Notes under the pieces: model-generated | What the model saw: the letters and a program-made list of their open reading frames with translations, nothing else | Database searches by the model: none | What the model was told of the DNA's origin: nothing | Shown here: piece after piece, positions 3,215 to 61,592 of the stretch | How positions within the stretch are numbered: position 1 is the stretch's first letter | Layout of the letters: every line of letters begins with the position of its first letter | Position numbers and translations under genes: made by a program | Source: a virus | Length of the DNA: 64,000 nucleotides | IMG/VR virus record: IMGVR_UViG_3300010396_000011 | Coordinates: 1 to 64,000 of that record | Direction: 5' to 3' (one strand)

Positions 3215-4225
3215 ATGTTTCCCACCCTCACCCCTCAGCAGTACCAGCAAAACCTCGCACGCCTCCGCTCCGGAATGTCTCTCGACGCCGCGGCGGAAGC
3301 GTCCACCGGCCAGGTGTTTCTCCAGTCGGAACTGACGCGCATCGATCCGTCGCTGCGCATGCCGCTGGAGAATTACACGCACTACCGTGACATTCCGATG
3401 ACCACCGGCGGAGGCTGGATGGACTACGAAGTCGCGCGCAACGTGGACTTCCGCGGCCCGCAGGACGGCAGCACCGGCACCGACTCGAATGACGTTCGCG
3501 TCATCGAGTACAACACTGATCAGGATGTCTGGCCGACCCTGCCTTACCAGGTGAACGTCCGCATCCCGCTCATCGAATCGCTGAAGATGGCGACCACCGG
3601 ACGCTCCCCGCAGGATCTGCTCGACAAGGCGGTGCGCGTCGATTGGCAGAAGTCTCTCGACGTCCGCGTCTACCAGGGAATCAAGGGCAACACCGGCTTG
3701 GTGAACAGCCCCATCGTCACTTCGCAACTGGTGGCCGTCGGTGCCGCCGGTCCGCGCACTTGGGTTTCGAAGACGCCGCAGGAAATCTACAACGATTTCA
3801 ACACCATGGCGTACACGGCCTGGAACAACGCGGGCGGCTCTCCGCTGGCGATCCCAGACCGCTACCTCGTCCCCGGATCGCAGTGGTCCGCGCTCACTCA
3901 GCCCATGGTGGTTGGCAGCACTCCGCTGGCTCTCAGCGTGGCGCAGTACCTGAAGGAAAACGGCTTCGCTAAAACCTTCGGCATCACGCCGGAGATTTAC
4001 CCGCTGCCCGTCTGGCTAGAAACCGCTGGCGCCAGTTCTTCGAAGCGCGTCATCGCCTACCGCTTTGATCAGGACTGCCTCAGCTTCACGCTGCTGCAGA
4101 ACATCCAGCGCATGGGCGGCCCGCTGTCCGTGCAGGCTGGCGCGTTCCTCATCACCTACGTCGGCAATACCGGCGTGGTGAAGGTCAACCGTCCGCAGAC
4201 GATCAACTATTGGGATGGAGTATAA
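3215..4225 (+). CDS. Major capsid protein (DUF2184, HK97 fold)
   Basis: A 336-residue protein matching DUF2184 major capsid proteins. Supporting segments are an N-terminal helical arm (residues 1-60), RNVDFRGPQDGS near residue 78, YQVNVRIPLIES near 111, and a C-terminal domain ending in PQTINYWDGV. It has a good ribosome site (AAAAGGAG) upstream of ATG 3215. It would assemble the icosahedral shell, guided by the scaffold encoded just upstream. The length is normal for the family and no insertion is visible. Confidence 0.85.
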   Translation: MFPTLTPQQYQQNLARLRSGMSLDAAAEASTGQVFLQSELTRIDPSLRMPLENYTHYRDIPMTTGGGWMDYEVARNVDFRGPQDGSTGTDSNDVRVIEYNTDQDVWPTLPYQVNVRIPLIESLKMATTGRSPQDLLDKAVRVDWQKSLDVRVYQGIKGNTGLVNSPIVTSQLVAVGAAGPRTWVSKTPQEIYNDFNTMAYTAWNNAGGSPLAIPDRYLVPGSQWSALTQPMVVGSTPLALSVAQYLKENGFAKTFGITPEIYPLPVWLETAGASSSKRVIAYRFDQDCLSFTLLQNIQRMGGPLSVQAGAFLITYVGNTGVVKVNRPQTINYWDGV

Positions 4226-44051: not shown

Positions 44052-44210
44052 ATGGTCAAGCGAAAGACAAAAGAGACTGCGGCGGTATTCACGGCGTCTC
44101 AACTTGCCGTGGTGATCGAGCTAGTGCGCAAGCAACCACAGCGGGCCAGCACTCCGACCCCGCCGACTACGACGCGGCGGCTGGAAGTGATGAAGGCGAG
44201 GACGGCATGA
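44052..44210 (+). CDS. Small basic protein, unknown
   Basis: A 52-residue protein, with GGAGGG 7 bp before ATG 44052. Helical and basic (SQLAVVIELVRKQPQRAS), followed by a Thr/Pro segment. It overlaps the pentapeptide gene by 4 bp (ATGA). Not recognised. Confidence 0.5.
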   Translation: MVKRKTKETAAVFTASQLAVVIELVRKQPQRASTPTPPTTTRRLEVMKARTA

Positions 44211-44881
44211 TCGAAATTCTCAATCGCTACACACGCGCGGTGATCTACGCGAGTGCCAGCGCCGAAACGATAGCCCAAGCGGTAGTTGAAGCGGCGAGGG
44301 TCCGCGCGAACCTCAGCTACGCGGACCTCAGAGAAGCGAACCTCAGCGGCGCGGACCTCAGAGAAGCGAACCTCAGCGGCGCGTACCTCAGCCGCGCGTA
44401 CCTCAGCCGCGCGGACCTCAGAGACGCGGACCTCAGCGGCGCATACCTCAGAGACGCGGACCTCAGAGACGCGTACCTCAGCCGCGCGGACCTCAGAGAC
44501 GCGGACCTCAGCGGCGCGTACCTCAGCCGCGCGTACCTCAGCCGCGCGGACCTCAGAGACGCGGACCTCAGCGGCGCGTACCTCAGCCGCGCGAACCTCA
44601 GAGACGCGGACCTCAGCGGCGCGAAAACCGATGCCGCCACCAAGATGGACCGCTGGTCGCTTGTGATTGTCGGATCGCGCCATGTCATCACGGCAACAGA
44701 CCGTCTGGTTGCCATCGGTTGCCAGCGGCACTCACTGGACTGGTGGCTGGAGAACTACAAGACAGTAGGCTCCGAGAGCGGCTATAGCGCCGAAGAAATC
44801 GAAGAGTACGGCGGCCACCTGAAGCGGATCGAAGCCGCCGCGAACGCCCTGAAATCCGATCTCGTTGCGAGGACGGCATGA
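44207..44881 (+). CDS. Pentapeptide repeat protein
   Basis: A 224-residue protein. Residues about 34-139 are over 20 pentapeptide units of the A(D/N/Y)LRx or A(D/Y)LSx type (ADLREANLSGADLREANLSG), which should form a right-handed four-sided helix of about five turns. Residues 140-224 are a separate helical domain (DRWSLVIVGSRHVITATD, HLKRIEAAANALKSDLVA) common in phages. Proteins of this shape can mimic DNA (Qnr, MfpA), but no such target can be shown here. The DNA repeats are nearly identical, so the number of units is likely to vary. Confidence 0.85.
   Translation: MIEILNRYTRAVIYASASAETIAQAVVEAARVRANLSYADLREANLSGADLREANLSGAYLSRAYLSRADLRDADLSGAYLRDADLRDAYLSRADLRDADLSGAYLSRAYLSRADLRDADLSGAYLSRANLRDADLSGAKTDAATKMDRWSLVIVGSRHVITATDRLVAIGCQRHSLDWWLENYKTVGSESGYSAEEIEEYGGHLKRIEAAANALKSDLVARTA
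44311..44622 (+). repeat. 15-bp coding tandem repeats
   Basis: Near-identical units of GCGNACCTCAGMGRC type encode the pentapeptides. Because the units lack stops in every frame, all other frames are open as well; those are artefacts. The identity suggests recent expansion by slippage or recombination. Confidence 0.8.
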
Positions 44882-46695: not shown

Positions 46696-46703
46696 CAAGT
46701 TAA
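46696..46703 (+). repeat. Target-site duplication, left copy (CAAGTTAA)
   Basis: CAAGTTAA directly flanks the GGCTATTC end of the transposon and is repeated at 48770-48777. Eight bp is the usual duplication of ISL3 elements. Confidence 0.9.
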
Positions 46704-46725
46704 GGCTATTCGGATTTGAGTGTGC

Positions 46726-47991
46726 TCAATGACCACAACTAAACAATTCGACCAGATGTGGCAGGGACACACCGTAGTCATCGGTGCTTCGGAGCCAGCA
46801 CTCCACCAGTCCAGAGAACGCTTTGGGCTTCTCAACGTGCTTGGCTTGGCCGAAGAGAACCTTGGCTCTGATGGCTTCAAACGAGTAGCCACGGCCCATT
46901 CGGTTGGCGACCTTCGCCATGCCGTTCACGGCTTCAGTGTAGGCGTTCGTGACCTTGTAGTCGAAGTAGTTGAAGATTTCGGGACGCCAATTGTCCACGG
47001 CCCGGATGACCTCAAAGAAGGCATCGCAGGTCTTCTTATCGCCTTGAAGGTATTCCTTCCATGTGTCGTACAGGTCCATCGCTTCGGCTTTGGTCTTGCA
47101 GTCGTAGATCTGGAAGAAGTCTTCTTTGGCGTTGTATGCGTTGAACAGGATCGGGACCAAATCAGTCCACTCCTGCATTGCCCGGAACTCTTCGGGCGTG
47201 AGATCGTGGCGGCGTTTGAGAAGCAACTTACGGCCTCTCAGGAGCTTGCGCCGTCCTTTCAAATCCAGTCCTTCACGGAAGGTCTTACGGATCGTATCGA
47301 GTGCGTGGTTCGCCAGCTTCACCACATGGAACACGTCTACGATACAGATGGCATTGGGCAAAACGTCCAGCACGGCATCCCGGTACGGCTTCCACATGTC
47401 CATGGTGACGACCTGAATGCGTTCTTTCTCAGGCAAGCATTGGAGCCACTTCACGACGGTGGGCTTGTTCCTATCCACCAGAATGTCAACGACAGTGTTC
47501 TCAGCAACATTGGTCAACATGCAACGGGGTTTGCGGATCAGGAACAGTTCGTCGATCCCAAGCCAAACCGGAGTTTCCGGCATCCAGCCGTTGTTCAGGT
47601 TGCGAACGTGGTCAAAGAAGATGTTACGGACGGTCTTTTCGTCCCGGCCCACGTCGCCAGCAACTTGGGTGAAGGTGCGTTCCAGACTCAGGGTCTGGAT
47701 GTGGTGCAACAGGCGAGTGGTCATCTGCCGCTTGTCGTCCATGAAGTAGAGCGGCTGGAAGAACGTCTTCTGGCATTCCAAGCATTTGTACCGCTGGCGT
47801 CGGACTTGAATCATGGCACGCTTGCCATGGATCGGGGTGTCGATGAAGCACTGGATCTGAACGCCGTGCCGCTTCAGTTGCGGCCCTTCAATGCCACACC
47901 GGACACAAAACTCAACGGGCTTGGTGAACTCGGCAGTAATCACCATATCGTGCTCATCTTCCCTTCGATCCAGCACGTTGTAGCCTTCCAT
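46726..47991 (-). CDS. ISL3-family DDE transposase
   Basis: A 421-residue protein from ATG 47991 (EGYNVLDRREDEHDMVI); the frame is open further upstream but runs into the passenger gene. An N-terminal zinc-binding region has CVRCG and CLECQKTFFQP, then an HTH-like segment. The catalytic core shows WLGIDELFL, VVTMDMWKPYRDAV and a late NAYTEAVNG carrying the acidic residue. These are hallmarks of ISL3-family transposases, and the length is normal. The stop overlaps the left terminal repeat. The opposite strand is also open for 447 codons; that is a shadow. Confidence 0.9.
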   Translation of the reverse strand: MEGYNVLDRREDEHDMVITAEFTKPVEFCVRCGIEGPQLKRHGVQIQCFIDTPIHGKRAMIQVRRQRYKCLECQKTFFQPLYFMDDKRQMTTRLLHHIQTLSLERTFTQVAGDVGRDEKTVRNIFFDHVRNLNNGWMPETPVWLGIDELFLIRKPRCMLTNVAENTVVDILVDRNKPTVVKWLQCLPEKERIQVVTMDMWKPYRDAVLDVLPNAICIVDVFHVVKLANHALDTIRKTFREGLDLKGRRKLLRGRKLLLKRRHDLTPEEFRAMQEWTDLVPILFNAYNAKEDFFQIYDCKTKAEAMDLYDTWKEYLQGDKKTCDAFFEVIRAVDNWRPEIFNYFDYKVTNAYTEAVNGMAKVANRMGRGYSFEAIRAKVLFGQAKHVEKPKAFSGLVECWLRSTDDYGVSLPHLVELFSCGH

Positions 47992-48059
47992 TCCCAGAAT
48001 GTTTGGCAAGAGAACAGGATAACAAGATCGGATTCTTGTGTGCTCACCGGGAGTACCAG

Positions 48060-48725
48060 ATGAGTACCATGCGATTCGCTTACGCAGATCCGCCATACAT
48101 TGGACAGGCGAAGAAGCACTACTCGCATGATCCGGCGTGCGCCGAAGTAGACCACCGGGAACTGATTGATCGGCTCGTGGCCGAATACCCCGATGGGTGG
48201 GCGTTGTCTCTTAGTTCTCCATCGCTCAAGTACATCATTTCGCTTTGCCCGGACGATGTACGGGTGATGCCGTGGGTGAAGCCGTTCTGTTCCTTCAAGC
48301 CGGGGGTCGGAGTGGCATACGCATGGGAGCCAATCATCGTTCGTGGTGGTAGGCCACGGACACGCCAACAGGCCACCATTCGGGATTGGGTAGAGGCCAA
48401 CATCACGCTTCAGAAGGGTCTGTCCGGTGCAAAGCCCAAGCACGTCTGCTACTGGCTCTTCGATGTATTCAATGTACTGCCGGGGGATAGCCTTGATGAC
48501 TTGTTCCCCGGCACTGGCATTGTTGGACGTTGCTTCGCTGAGTACACGTCCAAGCCAACCATTACAGACAGTCCGCTCTTCCAGTTCGATGAACGAAGTG
48601 CGATGGCAGTAGAAGACTTGGAGCGTCAGGGATACCACTTTAATGAGATCCCTGTTGGTGACAAATTACTGCGGATTCCAGTGTGCCCTAACACAGTGAA
48701 ATCCGAAGAGAGAACGAATGAATGA
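48060..48725 (+). CDS. DNA adenine methyltransferase, transposon passenger
   Basis: A 221-residue protein from ATG 48060 (GGGAG upstream). FAYADPPYIGQAKKHY near the N-terminus is the DPPY catalytic motif. SLDDLFPGTGIVGRCF near residue 150 is the SAM-binding FxGxG motif. The order DPPY then FxGxG suits beta-class amino-methyltransferases. It lies between an internal copy of the transposon end and the right terminal repeat, so it moves with the element. It might protect the element or phage from restriction. Recognition sequence unknown. Confidence 0.75.
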   Translation: MSTMRFAYADPPYIGQAKKHYSHDPACAEVDHRELIDRLVAEYPDGWALSLSSPSLKYIISLCPDDVRVMPWVKPFCSFKPGVGVAYAWEPIIVRGGRPRTRQQATIRDWVEANITLQKGLSGAKPKHVCYWLFDVFNVLPGDSLDDLFPGTGIVGRCFAEYTSKPTITDSPLFQFDERSAMAVEDLERQGYHFNEIPVGDKLLRIPVCPNTVKSEERTNE

Positions 48726-48769
48726 ACAGCGAACAATATGCGAAGCAACACACAAGAATCCGAATACCC

Positions 48770-48777
48770 CAAGTTAA
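48770..48777 (+). repeat. Target-site duplication, right copy (CAAGTTAA)
   Basis: Identical to 46696-46703 and directly follows the CCGAATACCC end of the transposon. Confidence 0.9.
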
Positions 48778-48835
48778 ACGACTACTACCCGGAAGCGTTG
48801 ATTGAGGTGGCGCACAAGGGCATGAGGATCAGCGT

Positions 48836-49057
48836 ATGACCCCGACCACCTACGCACTCCTCGCCCGCGAGCGCAAGGCCGCGAAGATAGCGGATGCCCT
48901 TCAAAAGATCGGCATCACCTCCGACGAAGCAGCCACGGCCACGGAGAACGAATATGGCATGGCGGCGGAACTGGCCGGCACGAAGGTTCCGAGTGCGGCG
49001 ACCTGGGCTGTGGTGGTGGATATGTTGCGAAGGAGCCAAGCGGGAGCACTGGTATGA
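48836..49057 (+). CDS. Hypothetical 73-residue protein
   Basis: ATG 48836 overlaps the stop of the interrupted gene. Mostly helical (LARERKAAKIADALQKIG, ATWAVVVDMLRRSQAGALV). It ends with a 4-bp overlap to the nuclease gene. Possibly a DNA-binding early protein; no motif strong enough. Confidence 0.55.
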   Translation: MTPTTYALLARERKAAKIADALQKIGITSDEAATATENEYGMAAELAGTKVPSAATWAVVVDMLRRSQAGALV

Positions 49058-50374: not shown

Positions 50375-51415
50375 ATGGCAACTCAAACGACAGCACCACC
50401 GAACAACGCGGTAGCTAGACAGCAGGCGCCTACTGGCCTCGCGACCGTCCAGAACTTGCTCGAAAAATTCAAGGGCCAGATTCAGGTCGCCCTGCCCAAG
50501 CACATGACTCCGGAGCGCATGATTCGCGTAGCGCTCACGGCTATGTCGCAGAATCCGCTACTGCAAAAGTGCGATCCACTGACGGTCTGCGCCTCGGTAG
50601 TGCAGGCATCGATTCTCGGCCTGGAGCCGAACAGCGCTCTCGGCGAGGCCTATCTGATCCCGTTCTGGAATCACAAGGGAAATGGCGGGCGCGGCGGCTA
50701 CGATTGCCAACTGCAGATCGGCTACAAGGGGCATACGAAGCTCGCTCGTAACTCCGGCGAAATCGCAATGATCGATGCGCAGCCCGTGTTCGAGGCTGAC
50801 GAATTCGACTGCGAAAAAGGAGACTCGCCGTACCTGAAACATAAGTGGGCGAAGACTGGAAGCCGTGGGAAGATCATCGGGTATTGGGCCGGATTCAAGA
50901 CGAAGGATGGTACCTTCTCTTTCGAATACTGGCCGTTAGAGCAGATCTACGAGCACCGCGACAAGTACAGTCAGGGAGCGTACAAGCGCGAGCGCGGCAA
51001 GGTCGTTCTCGACGAAAAGGGGCAGAAGGTTCTTCAGGGTCCGTGGAAAGATAGCCCTGACTGGATGTGCCGCAAGACCGTCCTCATTCAGGCTCTAAAA
51101 CTGGCACCGAAGTCCGTGCACCTGGCAACTGCGATCGCTCTCGACGAGGCTCACGACGCCGGCATCCGCCAGCAGTTCAGCATCGACGTTCCGCTGGAAT
51201 TGCAGCCTCCGGTGGAAGCGGAAGACACCGATCCGCCATTGCAAGAGCCGCAACGCACCGGATCGTCGGAAGCCGCGCCGAAACCCTGTACCACGAAGCC
51301 GCCATCGATTCTCGACGACAGCGACGAATTCGACGGCGACACCCTGCTCTGGCAGAAAGTGAAGGGCGTCGTATACCACCTGAATTCGGACGGCAAGGGT
51401 TACCACAAGCATTAA
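50375..51415 (+). CDS. recT: RecT single-strand annealing protein
   Basis: A 346-residue protein with the RecT core: ALPKHMTPERMIRVALTAM, QNPLLQKCDPLTVCASVVQA, GLEPNSALGEAYLIPF and YDCQLQIGYKGHTKLARNSG, then DSPDWMCRKTVLIQALKLAP. It anneals complementary strands during recombination-dependent replication. The C-terminal 70 residues are acidic and Pro-rich, perhaps for SSB or exonuclease contact. Normal length. Confidence 0.9.
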   Translation: MATQTTAPPNNAVARQQAPTGLATVQNLLEKFKGQIQVALPKHMTPERMIRVALTAMSQNPLLQKCDPLTVCASVVQASILGLEPNSALGEAYLIPFWNHKGNGGRGGYDCQLQIGYKGHTKLARNSGEIAMIDAQPVFEADEFDCEKGDSPYLKHKWAKTGSRGKIIGYWAGFKTKDGTFSFEYWPLEQIYEHRDKYSQGAYKRERGKVVLDEKGQKVLQGPWKDSPDWMCRKTVLIQALKLAPKSVHLATAIALDEAHDAGIRQQFSIDVPLELQPPVEAEDTDPPLQEPQRTGSSEAAPKPCTTKPPSILDDSDEFDGDTLLWQKVKGVVYHLNSDGKGYHKH

Positions 51416-51509: not shown

Positions 51510-51521
51510 TGAGCAAAAAAC

Positions 51522-51974
51522 GGCTATTCGGATTTGAGTGTGGAGAAACGTTGAAATGACATTGCATCCAAAATCGGATTCTGGTGTGGCTTCTGGTGAC
51601 GGTCGGGAAAGTATGCCGTTACGGGCCGTCGTTCAGGACGGCAATCTAGTCGTCTCCATCGGTATCCGCACGCTGGCTTTTGCCTTTGAGAATGGCGAGG
51701 GAAACAACCCGTATGACGAGTCTTCAGGGAAGTTCAAGCGGGAGTTCCAGATAGCCGATCCTCTTCAATTTGCCGAAGATGTCTGCCACGAAATCAACGA
51801 TGAGGAAGAGGACGGCAGCACGCCGCTGACCCGATTCTTGGATTACATGATGGACAAGGCTGTCGATAACGGCAGTCTCGGAATCTTGGACCCGGAAGAC
51901 GATGAACCACACGCAGCGAATCCCGATGGAGTTGACGGTGATGGAGCAAAAACCACACCAGAATCCGAATAGCC
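51522..51974. mobile_element. 453-bp non-autonomous element related to the ISL3-like transposon
   Basis: Left end GGCTATTCGGATTTGAGTGT is identical over 21 bp to the left end of the 46704 element. The right end, read inward, is GGCTATTCGGATTCTGGTGT. Flanking 8-mers are CAAAAAAC and CAAAAAAA, a near-perfect duplication in an A tract. There is no transposase inside; it carries one open frame. An inner copy of the end motif lies at 51572-51587. It would need the transposase encoded 4 kb upstream, or a host copy, to move. Confidence 0.75.
51556..51972 (+). CDS. Acidic protein carried by the small element
   Basis: A 138-residue protein from ATG 51556 (GGAG 10 bp upstream). PLRAVVQDGNLVVSIGIRTL and KREFQIADPLQFAEDVCHEI suggest a compact alpha/beta protein, with an acidic tail (DPEDDEPHAANPDG). 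The first and last codons run through the terminal repeats, so its ends are supplied by the element itself. No family recognised. Confidence 0.5.
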   Translation: MTLHPKSDSGVASGDGRESMPLRAVVQDGNLVVSIGIRTLAFAFENGEGNNPYDESSGKFKREFQIADPLQFAEDVCHEINDEEEDGSTPLTRFLDYMMDKAVDNGSLGILDPEDDEPHAANPDGVDGDGAKTTPESE

Positions 51975-51993
51975 CAAAAAAACAAGGAGAAAT

Positions 51994-53924: not shown

Positions 53925-55142
53925 ATGGACTACCAATCTGAAATCGCCCGCTGCGAACGGGAAATGGCCGAATGCGAAGCGTACGGCGGCAAAGACGGGT
54001 TCGGGGCACTCCTTGGATTTTGCGATTGGTGGGGTGAGCGGAGTTTATTGATGGCAGAAGCGTTGAGGGCACCTTTTCCTTACTTCGGCGGAAAGTCAAA
54101 AGTCGCTCCTTTGGCGTGGGAGCGGTTCGGGGACGTGCCGAATTACGTAGAGCCGTTTTTTGGCAGCGGCGCGGTGCTTTTGGGCCGTCCAACCACACCA
54201 GGTGTTGAAACAGTGAACGACCGCGATTGTCTGCTCGCAAACTTCTGGCGGGCACTCCAAAATGACCCAGATAAAGTAGCGCGGTATGCCGACAATCCCG
54301 TAAACGAAGCAGACCAGCACGCGCGCCACTTATGGCTCGTTCAGCAAGAAGAGTTTCGCGAGCGAATGAAGACCGAGCCGGAGTTTTACGATGCAAAGAT
54401 TGCAGGATGGTGGGTATGGGGACAGTGTATTTGGATTGGCTCTGGATGGTGCGCGGTACAGCTACCCCACCTCGGGGACGCGGGCAAAGGGGTAAACCGA
54501 CAGCTACCCCACCTCGGGGACGCGGGCACGGGCGTACATCGTAAGCTACCCCACCTCGGGAACGCGGGCACGGGGGGAGCATGGATAAGCGACCCCACCT
54601 CGGGAACGCCTTCGCGCCAAATCCCGTTTCTCAACCGTCCCGGCGCTGGAATCAACGCCAAAAATCGGCGCAATGCTCTTACGCAATACATGTGCGAGCT
54701 GGCGGAGCGGATGCGCCGCGTACGGGTATGCTGTGGCGATTGGTCGCGGGTGTGTGGGCCTTCGCCTACGGTCAAGCTCGGCATTACGGGAGTCTTCCTA
54801 GATCCTCCATACGCAGACGAAGCAGACCGCGCAGACTCACTGTATTCGACAGACGATCTGACCGTTGCCCATGCAGTGCGCGAATGGGCTGTCGCCAACG
54901 GAGATAACCGCAATCTTCGCATTGCGCTTTGCGGCTATGACGGGGAACACCAGATGCCGGATTCATGGGAGTGCATCGCGTGGAAAGCGCGCGGCGGGTA
55001 TGGATCACAGGGAGAAGGACGGGGCCGCGAGAACTCAGGAAGAGAGCGGATATGGTTTAGCCCGTTCTGCCTTCGACCGCAAGAGAGCCTATTCCACGCC
55101 CTGAATAGCGCACTGCCAAGCGACGCCGAGGCCGTAGCATGA
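53925..55142 (+). CDS. D12-class adenine DNA methyltransferase with tandem-repeat insertion
   Basis: A 405-residue protein. PFPYFGGKSKVAP (FGGK, residues 54-57), YVEPFFGSGAVLLG (SAM motif I, 76-84) and VFLDPPYADEADRAD (DPPY, near 293) define a Dam/D12-type N6-adenine methyltransferase. The N-terminal 45 residues are an extra helical part. Residues 179-220 are three 14-residue repeats (QLPHLGDAGKGVNR type) inserted between the motifs, where the DNA-recognition region lies. It follows the C5 methyltransferase by one base; the two likely modify phage DNA together. Confidence 0.85.
   Translation: MDYQSEIARCEREMAECEAYGGKDGFGALLGFCDWWGERSLLMAEALRAPFPYFGGKSKVAPLAWERFGDVPNYVEPFFGSGAVLLGRPTTPGVETVNDRDCLLANFWRALQNDPDKVARYADNPVNEADQHARHLWLVQQEEFRERMKTEPEFYDAKIAGWWVWGQCIWIGSGWCAVQLPHLGDAGKGVNRQLPHLGDAGTGVHRKLPHLGNAGTGGAWISDPTSGTPSRQIPFLNRPGAGINAKNRRNALTQYMCELAERMRRVRVCCGDWSRVCGPSPTVKLGITGVFLDPPYADEADRADSLYSTDDLTVAHAVREWAVANGDNRNLRIALCGYDGEHQMPDSWECIAWKARGGYGSQGEGRGRENSGRERIWFSPFCLRPQESLFHALNSALPSDAEAVA
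54459..54584 (+). repeat. Three 42-bp coding tandem repeats
   Basis: Units begin at 54459, 54501 and 54543, with GCTACCCCACCTCGGG conserved in all. They encode the LPHLG(D/N)AG repeats of the D12 methyltransferase. High identity suggests copy number can change. The reverse frame is open as well and is a shadow. Confidence 0.8.
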
Positions 55143-60542: not shown

Positions 60543-61592
60543 ATGGGACGAAGGCCAAAAGGCACCGGATCGATTCAGCCGCACGGCACGGGCTTCCGCA
60601 TCCAGTATTTCGTGGATGGTGCCCGCCGTCGCGAGACGTTCGCCACGTGCGAAGAGGCCGAGGCTAAACTCCTAGACAGACTCTCAGCCGCGAAGCGCGG
60701 GAGCATTGCCCCGGAAAAAATCTGCGTCGGTGATCTGATTGACCTGGTGATTGAGGATTACGAGTTTCGGCGCCTGCGCTCCGCAGCGGTGGTGAAATGG
60801 CGGGCAGAAGCGCACTTGCGGAAAGCATTCGGGAAAGTACGCGCCGCCAAACTGAGCCAAGATCACATCAAGCGCTATGTCGCGCAACGGCGATCTGAGG
60901 GCGCTACAGACGCGACGATCAACCGTGAGCTGGCCATCGTGCGTCGCGGATACACCTTGGGAGCGCAGCAAGACCCGCCATTGGTCCACAGGCAACCGTA
61001 CATCGCGAAACTCGACGAAGACAACGTGCGGCAAGGGTTTTTGGATGCTAGCGCCTATACTGCCCTATTAGCCGAGCTACCGGAGCGACTGAAGGCCCTG
61101 TGCGTCTGCGCCTATCATGTCGGCACGCGCAAGGGTGAGCTTCGCAAGATCCGGTGGGATCAGGTGGATTTCGAAGCGCTGACAATCCGACTCACGAAAC
61201 GGCAGACGAAAGGAAAGCGCCCGCGCACAGTTCCCATTTACGGGGACATGCTGCCATGGCTGGAAGCACAGAAGGAACGCTGCCCGCAAGGTTGCCAGTG
61301 GGTATTCTTCCACCACAGCAGGCCGGTCGGGGCTCAATTGCGCGGATGGCGCGAAGCCTGCGAACGTGCAGGAATGCCGGATCTGCTGTTCCACGATCTG
61401 CGCCGTTCCGCAGTGCGCAATATGGAGCGGGCGGGAATACCGCGCAAGGTGGCAATGGAGATCAGCGGACACAAAACTGAATCGGTTTACCGCCGCTACG
61501 ATATCGTGTCTAGCGATGATCTGCAATCAGCCGCCAAGAAACTCGCTGAGTTCCATTCCCGGAAACCAGAGCTTCGGATCGTCAACAAGTAG
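60543..61592 (+). CDS. int: Tyrosine integrase
   Basis: A 349-residue protein. A basic N-terminal arm-binding part (GRRPKGTGSIQPHG) is followed by a core-binding helical domain (residues 60-150) and a catalytic domain with GTRKGELRKIRW (Arg196), LLFHDLRRSAVRN (His284, Arg287), ISGHKTES (His310) and YRRYD (Tyr319). All key residues are present. The attP lies about 0.9 kb downstream. Confidence 0.95.
   Translation: MGRRPKGTGSIQPHGTGFRIQYFVDGARRRETFATCEEAEAKLLDRLSAAKRGSIAPEKICVGDLIDLVIEDYEFRRLRSAAVVKWRAEAHLRKAFGKVRAAKLSQDHIKRYVAQRRSEGATDATINRELAIVRRGYTLGAQQDPPLVHRQPYIAKLDEDNVRQGFLDASAYTALLAELPERLKALCVCAYHVGTRKGELRKIRWDQVDFEALTIRLTKRQTKGKRPRTVPIYGDMLPWLEAQKERCPQGCQWVFFHHSRPVGAQLRGWREACERAGMPDLLFHDLRRSAVRNMERAGIPRKVAMEISGHKTESVYRRYDIVSSDDLQSAAKKLAEFHSRKPELRIVNK

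What the first reader, a model, noticed from the sequence alone, without database searches (positions are those of the whole stretch)
46704..48769. Recent ISL3-like transposon carrying a DNA methyltransferase inside a phage genome
The terminal repeats begin GG and run TATTCGGATT; an exact 8-bp duplication (CAAGTTAA) flanks the element; and removing the element plus one duplication copy restores a 69-residue phage gene whose stop overlaps the next start. The passenger adenine methyltransferase is complete (DPPY and FxGxG). Passenger genes are known in the ISL3 family, but a methyltransferase delivered into a phage could alter its restriction resistance in one step.
Basis: partly seen in the sequence, partly recalled or inferred. 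Interest (0 to 1): 0.75.

Follow-up and report, generated by a model that had tools for sequence, protein, structure and literature searches.

The report
Phage transposon carrying a DNA methyltransferase
A jumping gene of the ISL3 family has landed in this bacterial virus with a DNA-modifying enzyme on board, and a second, transposase-less copy with the same ends carries another gene nearby; relatives in many phages show that such elements move phage genes, including ones that can shield phage DNA from host restriction.

Summary
Confirmed and extended. Window 46704-48769 is an ISL3-family transposon: GG-starting 21-nt terminal repeats, an exact 8-bp duplication (CAAGTTAA), an intact transposase, and a methyltransferase with a beta-class N6-adenine MTase fold. 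Removing it restores a 69-codon phage gene. A 90% identical cargo sits at another site in another phage with its own exact duplication. A census of viral contigs and named phages gave 56 distinct ISL3 elements and about a dozen transposase-less cassettes. Passengers include five kinds of DNA methyltransferase, Lar, Mom-like, DpdA-like and NADAR proteins. One MTase element sits identically in two different Vibrio phages. Carrier K251 g2 differs from its empty-site sister K242 by the element plus 8 bp and 9 point differences in 40,230. Nearly all elements carry one extra end repeat, upstream of the transposase only, at 45, 56 or 67 bp, one helical turn apart. ISL3 elements with passengers and mobile insertion cassettes are known kinds. 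Phage residence, recurrent DNA-modification cargo and the phased repeat appear undescribed in the literature I could search. The anti-restriction role is inferred, not shown.

The parts
46696..46703 (.). target-site duplication, left copy CAAGTTAA
   Evidence: exact repeat of 48770-48777
46704..46724 (+). left terminal inverted repeat GGCTATTCGGATTTGAGTGTG (downstream-of-transposase end)
   Evidence: similarity to L071 begins exactly here
46726..48096 (-). ISL3-family DDE transposase; the conserved part begins near M at 47991
   Evidence: NF033550 271.6 bits, PF01610 198.8 bits; D182, D233, E388 invariant in a 14-row alignment
48028..48042 (+). internal copy of the end core, TCGGATTCTTGTGTG, exact complement of the right end core, between transposase and MTase starts
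   Evidence: (I4, D1)
48060..48725 (+). passenger: beta-class (motif IV before motif I) N6-adenine-type DNA methyltransferase
   Evidence: DPPY and FPGTG invariant or nearly so in 18 relatives; fold matches METTL3 (1.2e-5) and CcrM (2e-4); Pfam/PHROG hits weak
48671..48685 (+). end-like repeat inside the MTase 3' end
48692..48706 (-). subterminal repeat, 57 bp in from the right (transposase-upstream) end
   Evidence: 11 of 15, above all 50 shuffles; p=0.01
48749..48769 (-). right terminal inverted repeat GGGTATTCGGATTCTTGTGTG
48770..48777 (.). target-site duplication, right copy CAAGTTAA
46556..46703 (+). 5' part of the interrupted 69-codon phage gene (continues at 48778-48839; stop overlaps the next ATG at 48836)
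   Evidence: joined flanks read open
51514..51521 (.). duplication beside the second element, CAAAAAAC (right copy CAAAAAAAC at 51975-51983, one A more)
51522..51974 (+). second, transposase-less element (453-bp cassette) with ISL3 ends at 51522-51542 and 51954-51974
   Evidence: left end identical to element 1 over 21 nt; TIR pair; same cassette at another site with exact duplication GAAATAAT in L005
51538..51972 (+). cassette cargo ORF, 144 codons (GTG; ATG at 51556); its TAG lies inside the right terminal repeat
   Evidence: homologous to the passenger of the Escherichia phage Fraca element; phrog_31817/21508, unknown function
51574..51588 (+). subterminal repeat of the cassette, 46 bp in from its left end

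Best explanation
46704-48769 is an autonomous ISL3-family transposon that inserted into a temperate phage gene. Its transposase (DDE type) cuts at the GG tips of the two ends and joins them to staggered target ends, giving the 8-bp duplication. It recognises the tips plus, at the end upstream of its own gene, a second site set one, two or three helical steps further in. The methyltransferase is a captured phage gene that rides between the ends. 51522-51974 is a cassette with the same ends and another phage gene but no transposase, moved in trans, possibly by element 1. Because passengers across such elements are often DNA-modification or counter-restriction genes, the likely benefit that keeps the transposon in phages is protection of phage DNA from host restriction. 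Shown: anatomy, family, duplications, passenger status, movement of sister elements between phages. Inferred: use of the phased second site, trans mobilisation, enzymatic activity and the anti-restriction benefit.
For: Ends, duplication and restored gene; family hits; MTase fold. Second element sharing 21/21 nt of end, with the same cargo at another site in another phage. Of 66 resolved viral rows, all but one have 8/8 duplications, and the exception has an N. DNA-modification or anti-restriction passengers: Dam (L055, Bacillus phage BSP9), D12 (Vibrio K256/K251 g2), C5 (L091), N4/N6-type (L049 cassette), Mom-like (L014 cassette), Lar (L008, L088, L109), DpdA-like (L102, L118), NADAR (L138). 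Same 2484-bp element in two Vibrio phages, with empty sites at 100%. K251 g2 minus element and 8 bp has the length of K242 with 9 mismatches in 40,230. Phased upstream-only repeat in 53 of 56 viral and 19 of 28 bacterial elements.
Against: No relative of this window's phage with an empty site was found. Enrichment of MTases among passengers over flanking genes is modest (5/51 against 3/139, p=0.034), and the wider count lacks a complete control. Many passengers have no known function. The phage already has a D12-type MTase gene of its own at 53925-55142. No activity of transposase or methyltransferase was tested.
Confidence: 0.85

Rival explanations
1. The methyltransferase is neutral hitchhiker cargo: ISL3 elements in phages pick up whatever phage gene lies near an end, and MTases are simply common phage genes.
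For: MTases of the window's family occur in phages outside elements (23 viral contigs, no end pairs detected round them; L101:5353-5889). Passengers are diverse, many of unknown function. MTase excess over flanking genes is modest.
Against: Five unrelated MTase kinds plus Lar, Mom-like, DpdA-like and NADAR recur among passengers. The K256/K251 g2 element has spread between two phage types with its MTase intact.
Confidence: 0.35
2. The methyltransferase serves the transposon itself, for instance by methylating its ends and so timing transposition, as Dam does for IS10 and IS50 (from memory).
For: MTase and transposase are divergently placed round an end-like repeat at 48028-48042, an arrangement that would allow joint control.
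Against: Most sister elements carry other passengers and no MTase, and cassettes carry an MTase without a transposase (L049:8730-10456).
Confidence: 0.08
3. Element 2 (51522-51974) is a decayed copy of element 1 that lost its transposase rather than an independent mobile cassette.
For: Identical left tip over 21 nt and same phage.
Against: Its interior is an intact, unrelated ORF. The same cassette with a 90% identical cargo lies at another site with an exact duplication in a record without a transposase.
Confidence: 0.03

Closest known systems
ISPst2 and similar passenger-carrying ISL3 elements (e.g. ISPst2a/b on Arthrobacter plasmids, PMC6305408)
   Same: ISL3 transposase, ends starting GGGTATnCGGA, 8-bp duplications, passengers between the ends.
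   Different: Those sit on plasmids and chromosomes and carry an ArsR-type regulator and permease. Here the vehicle is a phage and the cargo a DNA methyltransferase.
Mobile insertion cassettes (MICs; described for TnXax1-type ends in PMC4619425)
   Same: Passenger gene flanked by transposon ends, no transposase, presumed trans mobilisation.
   Different: The ends here are ISL3, the residents are phages, and a cassette is typically one phage ORF filling 260-770 bp.
ISL3-family transposons in Vibrio phages K256/K251 g2 and Bacillus phage BSP9
   Same: ISL3 transposase plus a DNA methyltransferase passenger inside a phage with exact 8-bp duplications.
   Different: Different MTase families (D12, Dam) and transposases only 33% identical; annotated gene by gene, not as transposons, in the records shown.
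Integron cassettes in phages (PMC9892861, seen as a search result, not read)
   Same: A way for phages to gain single genes without homology.
   Different: Site-specific integrase and attC, not a DDE transposase with terminal repeats.

Membership tests
ISL3 insertion-sequence family | ISL3-type DDE transposase | tested here: met
   NF033550 271.6 bits (cut-off 180), PF01610 198.8 (cut-off 23); D182, D233, E388 invariant
ISL3 insertion-sequence family | N-terminal zinc ribbon and HTH | tested here: met
   PF13542 35.5 bits (cut-off 27.4); PF14690 24.6, just under its cut-off 25.5
ISL3 insertion-sequence family | terminal inverted repeats beginning GG | tested here: met
ISL3 insertion-sequence family | 8-bp target duplication | tested here: met
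   CAAGTTAA exact; 8/8 in nearly all sister elements
ISL3 insertion-sequence family | transposition activity | not testable with these tools
   needs a bench assay; indirect support from the identical element in two phages and empty sites
Mobile insertion cassette (second element) | transposon ends and duplication, passenger gene, no transposase | tested here: met
   51522-51974; left/right duplications differ by one A, but the L005 copy is exact
Mobile insertion cassette (second element) | moved in trans by a cognate transposase | not testable with these tools
   10 of 12 records with cassettes hold no ISL3 transposase; window and L049 do
beta-class N6-adenine DNA methyltransferase | DPPY before FxGxG and the MTase fold | tested here: met
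   Foldseek METTL3 E=1.2e-5, CcrM E=2e-4, TM 0.38-0.46, model pLDDT 78
beta-class N6-adenine DNA methyltransferase | methyl transfer to DNA adenine | not testable with these tools
   no assay; substrate (DNA or RNA, N6 or N4) not settled
Phage-only lineage of ISL3 transposases | clade of viral transposases excluding bacterial ones | tested here: inconclusive
   32-row viral clade dissolves when more bacterial rows are added

The most novel reading that the evidence does not exclude
ISL3 ends and transposases form a general gene-shuffling system of phages: single phage genes, often ones that defeat host restriction, circulate as minimal cassettes without transposase and are moved in trans by transposases of co-infecting phages or hosts, a DDE-transposon counterpart of integron cassettes.
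Probability: 0.4. Interest if true: 0.82.

Novelty: new variant of a known kind. Interest (0 to 1): 0.64.

Why it matters
How phages gain DNA-modification and counter-defence genes without homology is mostly inferred from mosaic genomes. Here the vehicle is visible with exact ends, and natural near-isogenic pairs exist (Vibrio phages K242 and K251 g2). So the idea that a transposon hands a phage restriction resistance in one step can be tested directly. The phased subterminal repeat also gives a concrete, testable rule for how ISL3 transposases see their ends.

Tried and rejected
RecT search for relatives of the host phage: none confirmed. A phage-only transposase lineage: a 32-row viral clade appeared and held with 11 further bacterial sequences, but fell apart with 19 more, so it is not claimed. 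MTase enrichment: only modest against flanking genes; the wider anti-restriction count (11/51 against at least 3/139) lacks a full control because the tally shows 25 of 78 families. The 447-aa ORF on the + strand at 46720-48063 is antisense to the transposase and was disregarded. MTase relatives in 23 viral contigs gave no ISL3 end pairs with duplications. In L049 the outer ISL3 ends gave no matching duplication, so only the inner MTase cassette is used. Row L119 (4298 bp) is a chance pairing and was left out of the later counts. Literature: no paper found on ISL3 elements with MTase passengers in phages or on subterminal repeats in ISL3, but only open-access text was searched and ISfinder was not available.

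Full report
OBSERVATION. The sequence at 46704-48769 has 21-nt terminal inverted repeats beginning GG (17 of 21 alike) and exact 8-bp copies of CAAGTTAA on both sides. Joining the flanks at one copy gives an open 69-codon frame from GTG 46556 whose TGA overlaps the next ATG. Inside lie a 456-codon ISL3-family transposase on the minus strand (NCBIfam 271.6 bits, Pfam PF01610 198.8 bits) and a 221-codon ORF on the plus strand with DPPY and FPGTG motifs. Similarity to the nearest transposase locus, L071, starts exactly at 46704, so the ends do bound the conserved element.

THE PASSENGER. Profile libraries hit the passenger only weakly (Pfam D12 E=0.056, PHROG 1996 E=0.002). It has 23 relatives in viral contigs at 39-69% identity; no pair of ISL3 ends with a duplication was detected round them, so it looks like an ordinary phage gene that was captured. 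An alignment of 18 keeps YADPPY and the DxFPGTG region. A model (pLDDT 78) matches METTL3 (E=1.2e-5) and CcrM (E=2e-4), that is, a beta-class amino-methyltransferase with motif IV before motif I. Whether it methylates DNA adenine is inferred. Its last ~45 residues are not shared by relatives and run over end-like repeats.

A SECOND ELEMENT. Searching the phage with the element found a perfect 21-nt copy of the left end at 51522. It opens a 453-bp element (51522-51974) with a matching right end and flanks CAAAAAAC/CAAAAAAAC. It holds no transposase but one ORF, whose stop codon lies inside the right terminal repeat. The same cassette, with 90% identical cargo, lies in another 67-kb phage (L005) with an exact duplication GAAATAAT, so it is mobile. 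Its cargo is homologous to the passenger of an ISL3 element in Escherichia phage Fraca.

CENSUS. Two pattern scans of viral contigs and a transposase-profile scan gave 66 resolved viral rows with transposase, 56 distinct after removing copies. All have 8/8 duplications except one whose flank holds an N. About a dozen transposase-less cassettes of 263-1727 bp were also found. In L049 an MTase cassette with duplication ACAATATG sits inside another ISL3 transposase gene, and the reading frame is restored across the joined flanks. Named phages show the same: Vibrio phages K256 and K251 g2, Seahorse, Val-yong3, Escherichia phage Fraca, Bacillus phage BSP9, Caulobacter phage DMCA. Ten of the 12 records with cassettes, the window included, have no ISL3 transposase on the record; the window and L049 do.

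CARGO. Passengers in phage elements are phage genes. DNA-modification or counter-defence: Dam PF05869 (L055, BSP9), D12 (K256/K251 g2), C5 (L091), a DNA MTase cassette (L049), a Mom-like cassette (L014), Lar (L008, L088, L109), DpdA-like (L102, L118), NADAR (L138). Others: PAPS-reductase-like, YopX, DUF551 and many unknowns. Bacterial ISL3 relatives instead carry mostly MerR/MerA-like genes, transporters and toxin-antitoxin-like genes, by reading of sequences. Against 139 flanking ORFs, MTases are modestly over-represented (5/51 against 3/139, p=0.034). The wider anti-restriction count is suggestive only.

MOVEMENT SEEN IN NAMED PHAGES. The same 2484-bp MTase element lies in K256 and K251 g2 with different duplications. 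Empty sites exist at 100% identity: 67 records hold at least 80% of the K256 joined flanks (K303 and others), and K242, K243, K245, K279 and K280 hold the K251 g2 site. Taking element and 8 bp from K251 g2 leaves 40,230 bases, the length of K242, with 9 mismatches. BSP9 has a filled site that is empty in fHSPT3 at 97.5%.

END ARCHITECTURE. Comparing each end with its own interior against shuffles, 53 of 56 viral and 19 of 28 bacterial elements have one extra copy of the 15-nt end core, always at the end upstream of the transposase and never at the other. It sits at 44-46, 55-57 or 66-67 bp. The steps of about 11 bp match one turn of DNA, so I read it as a second transposase site held on the same face. 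In the window it lies at 57 bp in element 1 and 46 bp in the cassette. Related elements are not independent, but transposases in the set differ widely (27-49% identity to the window's).

COMPARISON. ISL3 elements with passengers are known, e.g. ISPst2 with an ArsR-type regulator and permease, ends GGGTATCCGGA, 8-bp duplications (PMC6305408), and cassettes with transposon ends but no transposase are known as MICs (PMC4619425). [quoted passage not shown] I found no report of this phage-borne group, of MTase passengers in ISL3, or of the phased repeat, within open-access text only. I call it a new variant of a known kind. A phage-only transposase lineage was tested and not upheld.

WHAT IS INFERRED. 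Catalytic activity, trans mobilisation of the cassette by element 1, the role of the phased repeat and the anti-restriction benefit rest on anatomy and comparison. The phage also carries a D12-type MTase gene at 53925-55142 and an integrase, so the added MTase need not be its only protection.

Noticed in passing
L049:8730-10456 in IMGVR_UViG_3300050014_000315: A cassette with a 399-residue DNA methyltransferase has inserted into the transposase gene of another ISL3 element (duplication ACAATATG); the transposase frame reads on across the joined flanks.
   Followed up: partly
L231 (Vibrio phage K242) and L232 (K251 g2): Natural near-isogenic isolate pair differing by an ISL3-MTase element, 8 bp and 9 point differences; the insertion truncates a transcriptional regulator gene at its start.
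   Followed up: yes
ISL3 elements in general, e.g. window 48692-48706 and 51574-51588: One extra end-core copy, upstream end only, at 45, 56 or 67 bp (helical steps), in viral and bacterial ISL3 elements.
   Followed up: partly
window 51970-51972; cassettes in L007 and L016: The cargo ORF's stop codon lies inside the terminal repeat, which supplies the last residues (..ESE* or ..KSE*).
   Followed up: no
window 53925-55142: The phage carries a second, D12-type adenine methyltransferase gene (Pfam E=1e-8) outside the transposon.
   Followed up: no
window 44207-44881: Pentapeptide-repeat protein (Pfam E=4e-38) in the same early region.
   Followed up: no
window 50375-51415, 60543-61592, 3215-4225: RecT recombinase, tyrosine integrase and major capsid protein: a temperate tailed phage.
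   Followed up: no
L140:2898-3500 and L142: Passenger of phrog_12600 (unknown function, E=3e-77) with a PPC motif, in identical elements of two phage contigs.
   Followed up: no
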